DNA of 36,266 nt, from NCBI GenBank assembly GCA_016650125.1, contig JAENWT010000024.1:1-36266 (forward strand), read 5' to 3'. The notes under the pieces are model-generated. The model was not told the origin of the DNA, made no database searches, and worked only from the letters and a program-made list of their open reading frames with translations. A program made the translations under genes and the position numbers. Shown piece by piece: positions 17,631 through 27,835 of the stretch. The number at the start of each line of letters is the position of its first letter. Positions within the stretch are counted from its first letter, which is position 1. This DNA is from Thermoleophilia bacterium. GTDB lineage: Bacteria; Actinomycetota; Thermoleophilia; Solirubrobacterales; 70-9.

Positions 17631-18707
17631 CTACGCCCCGGGCTCAGCCTCGGGGACCCGCTCCCACCTGGCACCCCGACCTCGCTCGGCGGTCAGGTGA
17701 CCTTCGTCCCGCAGTCCGTCGAGTGCATCTCTAATCGTTGCCTGACTGATGTCGGGCAGGGCATCGTCGATCTGGGCGAGCTGAAAGCGGCGGGGTGCAT
17801 GGGTGAGCACGTAGTTCTTTGCCTGCTCGCGTTTGGTGGTGCCCACCAGCTTCGTATCTGACGCCATCAGCTTCTCGAAGTCGGCATACGCATCCTCGAT
17901 AATTCTGAGCAGATACCTGGCCCAGTAAAGGTAGTCATGAGTGCCCTTGTGCCAGCCGGACTGGCTCTCCCTGAGGGCGAGGTAGTAAGAGTTCTTCGTA
18001 TCGAAGATGCGTTGTTCCAGGGAGACGTACTTGGCCACCCCGTACCCGTTGCGAAGCAGCTCGTTTGTGGTCAGCAGGCGGGCGATACGGCCGTTGCCTT
18101 CCTCAAACGGGTGGATTGCCAGAAAGTCGAGGATCAGTGCGCTGATCAGCAGGAGTGGCGATACCTGACCACTCTCGAGCGCAGATTCATAACGCTCGAC
18201 CAGTTCGGTGAGATTCTGTTCGGTCGGCTTGCCTGCCGGGACCGTCTTGAAGATCACTTTGCTTCTGCCACCAGGCTCATCGGTCCCGATGAAGTTGTCA
18301 CTCGTCTTGAGCTTGCCCGCGGATGGATCACCCGTGTTCCGCATCAGCAGGCGATGGAGATGCAGCATCAGAGGAACGGTGAGTTTTTCCGGGTCCTTCC
18401 CGATCAGGTAATCGACAGCGTCGCGGTAGCCGGCGAACTCTTCTTCGGATCGATCTCGATAGGGCCCGGGGGCACTTCCCCTGAGGACTTCAAGGGCTCG
18501 CTGATCATCGAGTATTACGTTTTCGATCGCGCTTGATGCCGTGATCGAATCGAACCTCGTTCTCGCTGCGAGCCGCTTCAGAATCTGAGGAGCCTGAGCT
18601 TCGTAGAGCTGTTCCCGGCCGCGGCTGTATTCGATCGAACCCACCAATTGGACGAGGTCGAGCGGTACCGGAGCGAACTGGCCTGGAATGTCAGAAAAAG
18701 AGCGCAA
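17631..18707 (-). CDS. Fic-domain protein with C-terminal winged helix (Fic no. 3)
   Basis: 358 residues. Inhibitory motif SSAIEN (58-63), active-site loop HPFEEGNGRIAR (199-210), flap region around residues 150-156, and a C-terminal winged helix (FQLAQIDDALPDISQATIRD followed by ALDGLRDEGHLTAERGRGAR) that should bind DNA. This is the common class II Fic-wHTH architecture. Start TTG 18707 is uncertain; no ATG or GTG lies between it and the upstream in-frame stop. About 25-50 bp upstream are two TTGTCA direct repeats (18730-18735 and 18751-18756, 21 bp apart) and 5-bp arms ACATT/AATGT between them, which may be the operator. It is close in layout to Fic no. 4 at 26846-27835. Confidence 0.88.
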   Translation of the reverse strand: MRSFSDIPGQFAPVPLDLVQLVGSIEYSRGREQLYEAQAPQILKRLAARTRFDSITASSAIENVILDDQRALEVLRGSAPGPYRDRSEEEFAGYRDAVDYLIGKDPEKLTVPLMLHLHRLLMRNTGDPSAGKLKTSDNFIGTDEPGGRSKVIFKTVPAGKPTEQNLTELVERYESALESGQVSPLLLISALILDFLAIHPFEEGNGRIARLLTTNELLRNGYGVAKYVSLEQRIFDTKNSYYLALRESQSGWHKGTHDYLYWARYLLRIIEDAYADFEKLMASDTKLVGTTKREQAKNYVLTHAPRRFQLAQIDDALPDISQATIRDALDGLRDEGHLTAERGRGARWERVPEAEPGA

Positions 18708-23044: not shown

Positions 23045-23794
23045 ATGAGTTTTCAAGGGAAGGTCGCGCTGGTCACGGGTGGAGCCAACGGTCTGGGGCG
23101 GGCGACCGCCGCGCGCCTGATCGGGCAAGGGGCGAAAGTCGTTCTGGCCGACATCGAATCGGAGACCGGCGAGGCTGCCGCGAGCGATCTCGGCGCCGAG
23201 TTTATCCAAACAGACGTCACCGTCCCGGAGGCGAGCCAGGCGGCCGTCGACTTCACCCTCGAAAAACACGGCAAGCTCGATCTCGCCTTCCTGAATGCCG
23301 GAATCGTGACCGGCTCCGGCCTGATCGAGCACTTCGACCTCGACGGCTACCGCCGGGCGATGGGGGTCAACCTCGACGGCGTCGTCTTCGGCCTGAACGC
23401 AGTCGTGCCGGCGATGCGGCAGAGCGGCTCCGGCTCGATCATCGCCACCTCGTCCCTGGCCGGCCTCGCGCCGACCCCGTACGACCCGATCTACGCCGCG
23501 AACAAACACGCGGTCCAGGCGATCTGCCGCTCGATGGGTCCGCTGCTCATCGAAGAAGACATCAAGCTGAACGCGCTCTGCCCGGGGTTCGCCGAGACCC
23601 GCATCGTCGACGGCATCAAGGAGGGGCTGGGCGAGGCCGGGATCCCGCTGATCAAGGTCGAGAAGGTGGTCGATGGCGTGATGGAACTGTTCGAGGCCGA
23701 CTTCAGCGGCCAGGCCTTCTTCGTCCAGGCCGGCATGGAGCCACAGATCTTCAAGTTCCGCCGTGTGCCCGGCCCTCGGGCCGTAGAAGGCTGA
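23045..23794 (+). CDS. Short-chain dehydrogenase/reductase (SDR)
   Basis: 249 residues of a classical SDR: cofactor loop TGGANGLGRATA (residues 11-22), acidic residue after strand 2 (VVLADIES, suggesting NAD preference), LAFLNAGIV, catalytic Ser in IATSSLAG, and YAANKHA (YxxxK). It reduces or oxidises a hydroxyl/keto group; substrate unknown. The C-terminus is slightly extended with FKFRRVPGPRAVEG. Followed after 13 bp by a perfect 16-bp hairpin that is probably its terminator. Confidence 0.92.
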   Translation: MSFQGKVALVTGGANGLGRATAARLIGQGAKVVLADIESETGEAAASDLGAEFIQTDVTVPEASQAAVDFTLEKHGKLDLAFLNAGIVTGSGLIEHFDLDGYRRAMGVNLDGVVFGLNAVVPAMRQSGSGSIIATSSLAGLAPTPYDPIYAANKHAVQAICRSMGPLLIEEDIKLNALCPGFAETRIVDGIKEGLGEAGIPLIKVEKVVDGVMELFEADFSGQAFFVQAGMEPQIFKFRRVPGPRAVEG

Positions 23795-23807
23795 ATCAGA
23801 CGCAGTA

Positions 23808-23844
23808 AAGCTGAACCACGGAAGCGGGTTCCGTGGTTCAGCTT
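23808..23844 (+). terminator. Perfect 16-bp hairpin after the SDR gene
   Basis: AAGCTGAACCACGGAA (23808-23823) pairs exactly with 23829-23844 around a 5-nt loop GCGGG. It begins 13 bp after the SDR stop. No T-run follows, as is common in GC-rich actinobacteria. Confidence 0.7.
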
Positions 23845-23919
23845 CGAAAAGACGCCTTGTCACAACCTTGCGCGGACGTGACATGGCAGAAATGGCGGTA
23901 TTGGCAGCGAACGGTAGTA

Positions 23920-24132
23920 CTGGCAGTGAAATTGCCCGCTCAGCGGGCAAGTTCACTGCCAGAACGTTTGGCTCGGCTCCGAACCTGCTTCTGGCAACGG
24001 TATTGCGGGTTATGGATAGGAAATCGTTGCCAAAGAGTTTGGTCGGCTCTGAACTCGTTCTCTGGCAACGGTTTCCCGGGATATAGATATGAAGTCGCTG
24101 CCAGAACAGTTGCTCCGCGCTGTCAGCAGGAG
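23920..24132. repeat. Tandem array of three 71-bp hairpin units
   Basis: Units start at 23920, 23991 and 24062, exactly 71 bp apart. Each is a 45-nt segment that begins CTGGCA and ends TGCCA(G/A)A(A/G), able to fold on itself, plus a 26-nt spacer. In unit 1 the arms are 21 nt with one mismatch around a single-base loop (23920-23940 / 23942-23962). In units 2 and 3 the arms are 8-9 bp (CTGGCAACG with CGTTGCCA or CGCTGCCAG) and the interior differs. Spacers 1 and 2 are similar (GTTTGG, CGGCTC, GAAC); spacer 3 has diverged. A further hairpin with arms TGGACCCG/CGGGTCCA starts at 24133, again in register. The 71-bp period is not a multiple of three, so coding is unlikely. Bases 23845-23919 hold a weaker, related sequence. 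Confidence 0.8.
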
Positions 24133-24228
24133 TGGACCCGATCCGGGGACCGGGTCCAGGCTCCTCCTCCCCCTGGTCCCTCCCCAGGAACCCGGACGGC
24201 TTCAAAAGCGCCATCCGACTCATATAAA

Positions 24229-24256
24229 CCGATAATCCGCCGAAAGTTGCTATCGG
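24229..24256 (-). terminator. Probable terminator of the small membrane protein gene
   Basis: CCGATA (24229-24234) and TATCGG (24251-24256) form a stem; on the minus strand it is followed by TTTATAT. It starts 8 bp after the stop of the gene at 24264. Confidence 0.4.
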
Positions 24257-24263
24257 CTCTTGG

Positions 24264-24674
24264 TCAATTCCGGCGGTTCCAGAGGATCGAGATCGGGATC
24301 ATCGCGGCGACCAGCAGGACGACGAATCCGAAGGTCTGGCCGACCGCTTCGGTGGTGGTGAAACCTTCGAGGTGGGAGATGTGGAAAGCGACGTGAAGGA
24401 CCTGTGCGATCAGCCAGGCGATGCAGAGCGGGAGGATCAATTGCCGCGACGGCTTGACCAGTGACCAGCAGAAAAGGAAGCCGAAAGCGAGGTAGAGCCC
24501 GCCGACGTCGGTGATCAGGTGCTCGTTGTACGGCGGCAGCAGGTTGACCCATGACGTGAAGAACGGATAGTCCTCGTAGAAGGTGCCCGGAGCGAACGCG
24601 GCCGGCAGCCCGACCGTCAGCGCGGCCAGGGCGAGCACGGCCAGACTTGCTTTGATCAGGTTCGAACGGTTCAT
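24264..24674 (-). CDS. Small four-helix membrane protein, unknown function
   Basis: 136 residues with about four membrane helices: ASLAVLALAALTVGLPAAFA, DVGGLYLAFGFLFCWSLV, LILPLCIAWLIAQVLHVAFH and TFGFVVLLVAAMIPISILW. His residues in VLHVAFHISHLEGF line one helix end. The size and helix number resemble DoxX/DUF4345-like proteins, but I cannot assign a family. It follows the M23-like gene on the same strand by 15 bp upstream order reversed (the M23 stop is at 24690), so the two may form an operon with a hairpin between. Confidence 0.7.
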   Translation of the reverse strand: MNRSNLIKASLAVLALAALTVGLPAAFAPGTFYEDYPFFTSWVNLLPPYNEHLITDVGGLYLAFGFLFCWSLVKPSRQLILPLCIAWLIAQVLHVAFHISHLEGFTTTEAVGQTFGFVVLLVAAMIPISILWNRRN

Positions 24675-26843: not shown

Positions 26844-26869
26844 GATCACGATGCCCTGGAATCGTGATC
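26844..26869. terminator. Hairpin between convergent genes
   Basis: GATCACGAT (26844-26852) and ATCGTGATC (26861-26869) are perfect inverted copies with an 8-nt loop. The structure lies over the stop codon of Fic no. 4 and 34 bp after the secreted protein gene; flanking TTTTCGATGAT and ATCATCGAGAAAA nearly pair around it. It could end transcription from both sides. Confidence 0.5.
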
Positions 26870-27835
26870 ATCGAGAAAATCGGATTTCAGGCGCAGCCAG
26901 CTGGTTCCCCGACCCGATCCCTTTCGCTCGATCACGCCATCTTTCCTGAGTTCGCTCAGTACCTTCTCAATCGTTGAGTCGCTGACGCCCGGAGCCGCCT
27001 CTCGAACTTGCGCAACATTGAACTCGTTCGACAAGTTGCTGGCTATGAAACGCTTGACGAGCAGCTGTTTGCTTCCTCGCCCAGCGAGTAGTGAAGTTCG
27101 CGATTCGAACTGGCCGTAGGCCGCGTTGACGATTCCGAGGAAGTATTCCGTCCAGGGACGCAGGTCGTGTTTTCCGTCGTGCCATCCCGCAGTCGATTTT
27201 GCTAGGGCTTCGTAGTAGCTCTCCTTACTTTCTTCGATTAGCTTCTCGAGGCTGACGTAGCGCCCGACCTCGTAGTCGCCGAGGTACAGCAGCCACAGTG
27301 TTATTAGGCGCGACATACGTCCGTTGCCGTCACGAAATGGATGGATGACGAGGAAATCCAAGACGTACGCGGCCGTCAAGAGAAGGTGGTGATACTTCTG
27401 CTGGCGCTCTGCTTCATTGAACGCGTCGTGAAGCTCCGCCATGGCCGCTGGTGTTTCGTTGGCACTGACCGGAACGAATCGCACGACTTTGGTTCCGTCT
27501 GGGTGTTCTTCTTCAACCTCGTTGTCAAGTTTTTTCCAGTGTCCGGTTGTGTTGTCCCCGGTGTAACGACCAAGAGCGCCATGAATCTGCTCAACGTACT
27601 TGGGCTCGAAGTCGATGGTCGTTGCATTGACGTGCAACAAATCCAGGGCGTACCGATATCCAGCAATTTCCTGTTCGGAGCGGTCACGAGGTTCTGTTGT
27701 TTCGTTGACAAGCTCTTCGATACGTTTTCTGGGGGCGTGGATGTTCTCGATCGCGTTCGAAGCCTCCGCGCTTTGTATGAGGGCTACTTGCCGCAATGCC
27801 TCAAGCTGCTCGGGACTCTGTTTTGCGTAGGAAAT
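26846..27835 (-). CDS. Fic-domain protein with C-terminal winged helix and apparent ATT start (Fic no. 4)
   Basis: 329 residues if read from ATT 27835. Inhibitory motif SNAIEN (about 26-31), active-site loop HPFRDGNGRMSR (about 165-176), and a C-terminal winged helix (FNVAQVREAAPGVSDSTIEK and VLSELRKDGVIERKGSGRGT). Class II Fic-wHTH, the same layout as Fic no. 3. The first usual start, TTG 27796, would begin in the middle of the helix before the inhibitory motif; the 12 codons before it (SYAKQSPEQLEA) are in frame and family-like, and the in-frame TAG upstream leaves no ATG, GTG or TTG. ATT 27835 lies exactly 6 bases after TAGAAT. A frame loss at the N-terminus is the alternative. Confidence 0.85.
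   Translation of the reverse strand: MSYAKQSPEQLEALRQVALIQSAEASNAIENIHAPRKRIEELVNETTEPRDRSEQEIAGYRYALDLLHVNATTIDFEPKYVEQIHGALGRYTGDNTTGHWKKLDNEVEEEHPDGTKVVRFVPVSANETPAAMAELHDAFNEAERQQKYHHLLLTAAYVLDFLVIHPFRDGNGRMSRLITLWLLYLGDYEVGRYVSLEKLIEESKESYYEALAKSTAGWHDGKHDLRPWTEYFLGIVNAAYGQFESRTSLLAGRGSKQLLVKRFIASNLSNEFNVAQVREAAPGVSDSTIEKVLSELRKDGVIERKGSGRGTSWLRLKSDFLDDHDSRAS

What the first reader, a model, noticed from the sequence alone, without database searches (positions are those of the whole stretch)
23920..24158. Tandem 71-bp array of hairpin units after the SDR gene
Three units start exactly 71 bp apart, each a 45-nt self-complementary block plus a 26-nt spacer; a fourth, different hairpin begins at 24133, again in register. 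The ends of each hairpin (CTGGCA...TGCCA) are kept while interiors change, with unit 1 a near-perfect 43-nt palindrome. Conserved stem ends and drifting loops suggest selection on structure. It could be a structured RNA array, a protein-binding array, or a new REP-like family.
Basis: seen in the sequence. Interest (0 to 1): 0.75.

Follow-up and report, generated by a model that had tools for sequence, protein, structure and literature searches.

The report
Phased REP-like palindrome array in Solirubrobacterales
The 71-bp array is one copy of a genome-wide repeat system of an uncultured actinobacterium: short palindromes sit between genes, often in head-to-tail pairs 60-62 or 71-72 bp apart, and a sister species uses different sequences at the same spacings, so a protein probably reads the distance along the DNA.

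Summary
The array is real, but it is not three copies of one unit. Unit 1 (23920-23962) is a 'type B' palindrome. Units 2 and 3 (23989-24035, 24060-24106) are 'type A'. Their centres lie exactly 71 nt apart. The 'fourth hairpin' is unrelated and in register only by its start.

Both types are dispersed intergenic families in this genome: at least 31 type A copies at 18 loci and 11 type B copies. Type A forms direct tandem arrays at 71-72 nt in eight loci and 60-62 nt in two, mostly with unrelated spacers.

Same-genus relative G014 lacks A and B but has two other palindrome families. One has 30 direct doublets at 69-72 nt (25 at exactly 71). The other has 16 doublets at 60-62 nt (14 at exactly 61). 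The sequence is species-specific; the spacing is not. The two spacings differ by about one helical turn.

No RAYT transposase domain was found in either genome, and no GTAG/CGTC tag or Rfam match. Type A arms do not covary.

Best reading: REP-like palindromes with direct, phased doublets, bound by an unidentified protein that reads both sites on one DNA face (inferred). A bidirectional transcription attenuator is a serious rival. New variant of a known kind.

The parts
23920..23962 (.). Type B palindrome (array unit 1), CTGGCAGTGAAATTGCCCGCT/AGCGGGCAAGTTCACTGCCAG; centre 23941
   Evidence: covariance model R2 hit, 11 copies in the genome
23989..24035 (+). Type A palindrome (array unit 2), centre 24012, 71 nt from unit 1
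   Evidence: Covariance model R1 hit E 2.5e-14
24060..24106 (+). Type A palindrome (array unit 3), centre 24083, 71 nt from unit 2
   Evidence: Covariance model R1 hit E 1.0e-13
23963..23988 (+). Spacer between unit 1 and unit 2
   Evidence: Homologous to the next spacer: local tandem duplication or in-place hairpin replacement in this array
24036..24059 (+). Spacer between unit 2 and unit 3
   Evidence: unrelated to spacers of the other arrays apart from one weak pair
23808..23844 (+). Separate 16-bp perfect hairpin just after the SDR gene; candidate end-of-transcript hairpin, not a member of A or B
   Evidence: no terminator-like site with a T run found
24134..24157 (.).
   Evidence: Centre 62.5 nt from unit 3; no second copy in 400 kb
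23045..23794 (+). Upstream gene, short-chain dehydrogenase (SDR)
   Evidence: Pfam adh_short 1.1e-44
24264..24674 (-). Convergent neighbouring gene, no Pfam match; the array lies between the two 3' ends

Best explanation
The array consists of REP-like, non-coding palindromic repeats that populate the intergenic regions of this species. Shown: two families (A, B), dispersed, intergenic, mostly absent from relatives. Related species carry their own families. In this genome (type A) and in G014 (two families) the repeats form head-to-tail doublets or triplets whose centre-to-centre distance is held at about 71 or about 61 nt whatever the sequence. Inferred: each palindrome is a two-half-site binding site for a host or element-borne protein. 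Two palindromes a whole number of helical turns apart present the same face of the DNA, so the protein can bridge them. This pairing is needed either for copying the repeat to new sites or for its effect on the chromosome (nucleoid, supercoiling or transcription barrier), which keeps the spacing while the spacer sequence drifts. The repeats spread by copying (near-identical copies at unrelated sites) through an activity that is not a RAYT/Y1 transposase encoded in the genome as held.
For: Dispersed families: >=31 A copies at 18 loci and 11 B copies; near-identical copies in unrelated flanks. Intergenic in every resolvable case (the two copies upstream of rpsA were called 'inside' by my simple gene predictor, which I judge an error from reading the two gene starts in the sequence). 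Spacing: own genome 71-72 nt at 8 loci and 60-62 at 2, all direct; spacers unrelated between loci. Same-genus G014, different sequence: family 1 has 30 doublets (25 at 71, 3 at 70, 1 at 72, 1 at 69), all direct; family 2 has 43 exact copies against 0 for the reversed control and 16 doublets (14 at 61, 1 at 60, 1 at 62), with one doublet in inverted orientation still at 61. The two modes differ by 10-10.5 nt in both species. In the window itself a type B and a type A palindrome sit at 71.0 nt. Type A half-sites occur only as pairs: 50 hits, none solo. Arms behave as independent half-sites with a free central dinucleotide (AA/CG against TT/CG). Presence/absence at orthologous slots: upstream of rpsA the own genome has two units, G009 has a 30-nt gap, other relatives carry another hairpin, and G004 keeps a decayed type A-like unit; at another slot G004 has an element and the own genome does not.
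Against: No protein is identified and no binding, transposition or phenotype was observed. Phasing rests on two spacing modes; a third mode would be stronger. One pair in the own genome (C16) is 90 nt apart in opposite orientation. Single copies are common, so pairing is not obligatory. G014 family 1 units in a doublet are more alike than between doublets (p = 0.007), and the window spacers are homologous, so local duplication contributes; the other two families show no such excess (p = 0.12 and 0.25). Precise insertion in an otherwise identical empty site could not be shown, because the relatives are too distant.
Confidence: 0.5

Rival explanations
1. Bidirectional transcription attenuators: RNA polymerase arriving from either side first transcribes a C/A-rich, G-poor (rut-like) stretch, then pauses at one or two hairpins, and Rho or a similar factor stops it. 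The spacing would match two paused polymerases or a Rho/polymerase assembly.
For: Inbound C-over-G skew on both flanks: G014 family 1 +0.35/+0.31, family 2 +0.24/+0.29, own type A +0.15/+0.16, against about 0 for background intergenic DNA; strongest within 20 nt and gone by 80-110 nt. Many copies lie 2-40 nt after a stop codon. In G014 family 1, all five doublets between co-directional genes in the sample are in sense orientation.
Against: Four of 18 own type A loci lie between divergent genes (with the rpsA locus read from the sequence). Own-genome copies lie in both orientations relative to co-directional genes. No T runs. Type A pairing is not maintained by covariation. Type B flanks lack the skew. 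A fixed 61/71 distance is not required by known Rho sites (own knowledge).
Confidence: 0.2
2. Non-autonomous single-strand transposons of the REP/REPIN or IS200/IS605 type, moved by a RAYT or TnpA acting from elsewhere or now lost. Two hairpins in direct orientation would be the left and right ends.
For: Palindromes with conserved internal mismatches (G014 family 2 columns 9-12), intergenic, species-specific expansions, doublets. Pseudomonas REPIN doublets also show a 71-bp spacing (PMC3116915).
Against: PF01797 has no match in the own genome or G014, both about 95% complete, and only 1 of the 17 other genus members has one. No GTAG/CGTC tag. Doublets are direct, while REPINs and most REP dimers are inverted (PMC3116915, PMC3733652). 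Spacers are mostly unrelated, which does not fit a doublet moving as one unit.
Confidence: 0.12
3. Plain tandem duplication: a palindrome plus 24-26 nt of flank was duplicated locally by replication slippage at hairpins, and the spacers then drifted.
For: C21 triplet is a recent duplication (near-identical units and spacers). Window spacers 1 and 2 are homologous. Within-doublet similarity in G014 family 1 is raised (p = 0.007).
Against: It does not explain why the step is always 71-72 or 60-62 in three sequence families of two species, why most spacers resemble neither flank, why a B-A pair has the same 71 nt, or why units in two of the families are no more alike than chance pairs.
Confidence: 0.13
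4. CRISPR-like process: a short spacer (24-26 nt or 16-18 nt) is inserted into a single palindrome, which is duplicated, giving repeat-spacer-repeat.
For: Direct palindromic repeats, constant spacer length, unrelated spacers, within-doublet similarity in one family.
Against: Dozens of scattered loci instead of one array, units differ within doublets in the other families, many slightly different repeats, and single repeats are common. cas genes were not searched.
Confidence: 0.05

Closest known systems
REPINs / BIMEs (inverted REP doublets with RAYT transposases; Pseudomonas, Escherichia)
   Same: Short extragenic palindromes in species-specific families, organised as doublets with length-conserved, sequence-poor spacers; GI REPIN doublets also have 71-bp spacing (PMC3116915)
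   Different: Doublets are direct, not inverted; no RAYT domain in the genomes; no GTAG/CGTC tag; the palindrome is 43-47 nt; two spacing modes one helical turn apart
Untagged or CGTC-tagged REP-like palindromes without a dedicated transposase (PMC3733652)
   Same: No associated transposase; tens of copies; intergenic
   Different: CGTC stems are 8-9 bp and head-tail dimers are negligible there; here stems span about 17-21 positions and doublets are almost all head-tail at fixed spacing
CRISPR arrays
   Same: Direct palindromic repeats with unique spacers of constant length
   Different: Dispersed, mostly one-spacer arrays at many loci, variable repeats, single repeats common
Intrinsic or Rho-dependent terminators
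   Same: Often just after stop codons; C-rich, G-poor approach
   Different: No T run, also between divergent genes, species-specific repeated sequence

Membership tests
REP / REPIN | Short intergenic palindrome in tens of copies or more | tested here: met
   31 A + 11 B copies in own genome; at least 76 + 43 in G014
REP / REPIN | Unpaired GTAG (or CGTC) tag next to the palindrome | tested here: not met
   GTAG 0/30 and CGTC 3/30 near type A ends; 1/11 each near B
REP / REPIN | RAYT (Y1_Tnp, PF01797) encoded in the genome | tested here: not met
   No match in own genome or in G014; controls rang in E. coli and four others
REP / REPIN | Doublets in inverted orientation forming one large hairpin | tested here: not met
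   Doublets direct: 30/30 in G014 family 1, 14 of 15 resolvable in family 2, all 71-72 and 60-62 arrays in own genome
MITE / insertion-sequence ends | Same ends also found apart, flanking a longer element with a transposase | tested here: not met
   All 50 half-site matches lie in complete palindromes
Intrinsic terminator | Hairpin followed by a T run | tested here: not met
   No terminator-like site in 23700-24400
Known structured RNA family | Match to an Rfam model at its gathering score | tested here: not met
   Only chance-level hits
Structured RNA (unknown) | Compensatory changes in the stem | tested here: inconclusive
   None in type A; present in type B and at the tip of G014 family 2
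CRISPR | cas genes (Cas1/Cas2) in the genome | not tested
Rho-dependent terminator | Termination at the site in vivo | not testable with these tools
   Only the C-over-G skew of the flanks is shown

The most novel reading that the evidence does not exclude
A lineage of Solirubrobacterales carries a previously undescribed class of repeat, phased palindromic doublets, in which an unknown protein (not a Y1 transposase) measures a whole-helical-turn distance of about 61 or 71 bp between two palindromes. Each species has its own palindrome sequences but obeys the same rule.
Probability: 0.4. Interest if true: 0.8.

Novelty: new variant of a known kind. Interest (0 to 1): 0.62.

Why it matters
REP-type repeats are usually explained by RAYT transposases and inverted pairing. 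Here the spacing rule is conserved between species while the sequence is replaced, the pairs are direct, and no RAYT domain is found. That makes an old question testable: what moves or maintains REP-like palindromes when no RAYT is present, and does a protein read the distance between them? It also gives uncultured actinobacteria a repeat system with a simple quantitative signature (about 61 or 71 bp) that can be scanned for elsewhere.

Tried and rejected
Rfam: nothing. Plasmid records, distant blastn: none. Viral contigs with both palindrome patterns: none. RAYT in own genome and 60 relatives: absent where it matters. IS or MITE ends: rejected by the half-site search. Common tail or flank as part of the unit: rejected, flanks are not conserved. 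Position-specific 'first' and 'last' unit types, which would show that doublets move as one unit: not found overall in own genome or G014; two G014 family 2 doublets with homologous spacers may be one such copy. A larger stem formed by locus-specific pairing of the two outer flanks: not significant (p = 0.23 and 0.61); the C/A skew explains the apparent complementarity. The fourth hairpin as a unit: rejected. Direct palindromic doublets in another genus of the family (G020, 400 kb): none; G009 (400 kb) and G011 (260 kb) gave only chance or repeat-protein-like hits. Several paper searches for actinobacterial palindromic repeats returned nothing relevant.

Full report
1. The observation. The three blocks exist at the stated place. 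Measured by their CTGG starts they are 71 nt apart, and the palindrome centres are at 23941.0, 24012.0 and 24083.0. They are not three copies of one unit. The first is a 43-nt near-perfect palindrome (CTGGCAGTGAAATTGCCCGCT...), here called type B. The second and third are type A (TCTGGCAACGGTTTCC...GGAAACCGTTGCCAGA). The hairpin at 24134-24157 is a different sequence whose centre is 62.5 nt away, and it did not recur in 400 kb. Only unit 1 folds far better than shuffled DNA.

2. Genome-wide families. A blastn search of the own genome (G000, 2.83 Mb, 95% complete) found many partial matches. Covariance models gave about 31 type A copies at 18 loci (strands merged; one extra copy taken from a locus already fetched) and 11 type B copies. 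The tool scored only 150 candidates, so these are lower bounds; a direct model search of 400 kb added only weak hits (21 bits or less). Copies lie between genes, in tandem, convergent and divergent settings. The host is an uncultured member of the Solirubrobacterales: the nearest named record is a MAG of that order with 70% identity in the SDR protein.

3. Spacing in the own genome. Type A palindromes form direct arrays at 71-72 nt in eight loci and at 60-62 nt in two; one further pair is 90 nt apart in opposite orientation. The spacers of different arrays are unrelated beyond chance (1 of 45 pairs at p = 0.02). The window adds a B-A pair at 71.0.

4. The decisive comparison. Relatives of the same genus almost lack A and B (only G004 has a clear type A relative). 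An unbiased palindrome scan of 400 kb each of G000, G009 and G014 showed that relatives have their own palindromes. In G014, family 1 (TTCTGGAGCCGAT...ATCGGCTCCAGAA) has 76 listed copies (a lower bound) and 30 doublets: 25 at exactly 71 nt, three at 70, one at 72, one at 69, all direct. Two of these doublets on contig C29 look like duplicates of two on C7 and may be an assembly duplication. Family 2 (GTGGGGCC...GGCCCCAC) has 43 exact copies, against none in the other 17 genomes and none for the reversed control, and 16 doublets: 14 at 61, one at 60, one at 62. One of them, with the units in opposite orientation, is still at 61. So sequence is replaced between species while the two spacings, about one helical turn apart, remain. 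Of 57 doublet spacings tabulated, 39 fall in 69-72 and 18 in 60-62 (the 90-nt inverted pair was left out of that table, and the two-interval arrays were entered as one mean value each).

5. What the sequence of the palindromes says. Type A arms do not covary: the variable central dinucleotide (AA or CG on one side, TT or CG on the other) assorts freely, and swapping arms between copies costs nothing (p = 0.165). All 50 half-site matches in the genome belong to complete palindromes. This fits two recognised half-sites better than a selected RNA stem. Type B arms covary (p = 0.001), and so does the tip of G014 family 2, whose columns 9-12 hold a conserved, mostly non-pairing internal loop. So single-strand or cruciform recognition cannot be excluded.

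6. How doublets arise. Units within a doublet are more alike than between doublets in G014 family 1 (p = 0.007), but not in G014 family 2 (p = 0.12) or own type A (p = 0.25). First units do not resemble first units, and spacers mostly resemble neither flank. Local duplication therefore happens (the C21 triplet, the window spacers), but it does not set the distance by itself. A distance constraint, by a protein on one face of the helix, is the simplest common cause. This step is inference.

7. Turnover. Upstream of rpsA the own genome has two type A units, G009 has a 30-nt gap, G008 has a 45-nt gap, G001, G012 and G015 carry a different hairpin, and G004 keeps a decayed type A-like unit. At another conserved slot G004 has an element and the own genome has none. 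Gain, loss or replacement has therefore occurred between the species.

8. Flanks. For 45 nt on either side, the strand read towards the element is rich in C and A and poor in G and T in both G014 families and in own type A; background intergenic DNA shows no C/G skew. This resembles Rho-utilisation composition on both sides and is the main support for the attenuator rival. It could also be a target preference.

9. Comparison with known systems. By architecture this works like REP doublets. It is not filed as a REPIN, because the tag, the RAYT and the inverted orientation were tested and not met. The 71-bp spacing of Pseudomonas GI REPINs (PMC3116915) is a striking parallel, but those doublets are inverted. 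Head-tail dimers are described as absent, under-represented or negligible in tagged REP families (PMC3733652), and that paper also mentions untagged REP-like families elsewhere. CRISPR, MITE, intrinsic terminators and known Rfam RNAs do not fit; cas genes were not searched.

10. Verdict. The array is a real member of a repeat system that is ordinary in kind (REP-like) but unusual in its direct, phased doublets and missing RAYT. The descriptive part is strong. The protein-phasing mechanism is a reasoned inference without an identified protein.

Noticed in passing
45-nt flanks of type A (own genome) and of both G014 families: Inbound C/A-rich, G/T-poor composition on both sides of the elements, fading by about 80-110 nt; C/G skew absent from background intergenic DNA and from type B flanks.
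   Followed up: partly
L129 17836-17882, L139 15237-15285, L128 7531-7577, L140 6534-6584 (own genome): Further palindromes of possibly two more families: GATCGGGATA...TATCCCGATC and CTGGGTCGG...CCGACCCAG. The latter resembles type A with two bases missing and G009's GTGGGTCGGATTTCC.
   Followed up: partly
rpsA upstream gap in L194, L196, L202 (G015, G001, G012): A different hairpin, GAGCCCCTCCCAACCAT...ATGGGAGGGGC, sits in the same intergenic slot where the own genome has two type A units.
   Followed up: no
L168 12243-12410 (G014); similar palindromes in the G014 rpsA gap of L200: Another G014 palindrome (TTTTTTCTTTTGGTATTCGCTCCCGCTCGGTACCAAAAGCAAAAA) in direct copies 123 nt apart, about twice 61.5.
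   Followed up: no
L010 1615-1678 (contig C21, next to the type A triplet): Short tandem repeat GGATCGCCAGCCTTGT, about four copies of 16 nt, just downstream of the recent type A triplication.
   Followed up: no
window 17631-18644 (-) and 26846-27796 (-): Two Fic/DOC domain proteins in one window.
   Followed up: no
G014 contigs C7 (47663-50361) and C29 (5967-8668): Two doublets occur at nearly the same distance on both contigs; either a duplicated segment or an assembly duplication.
   Followed up: no
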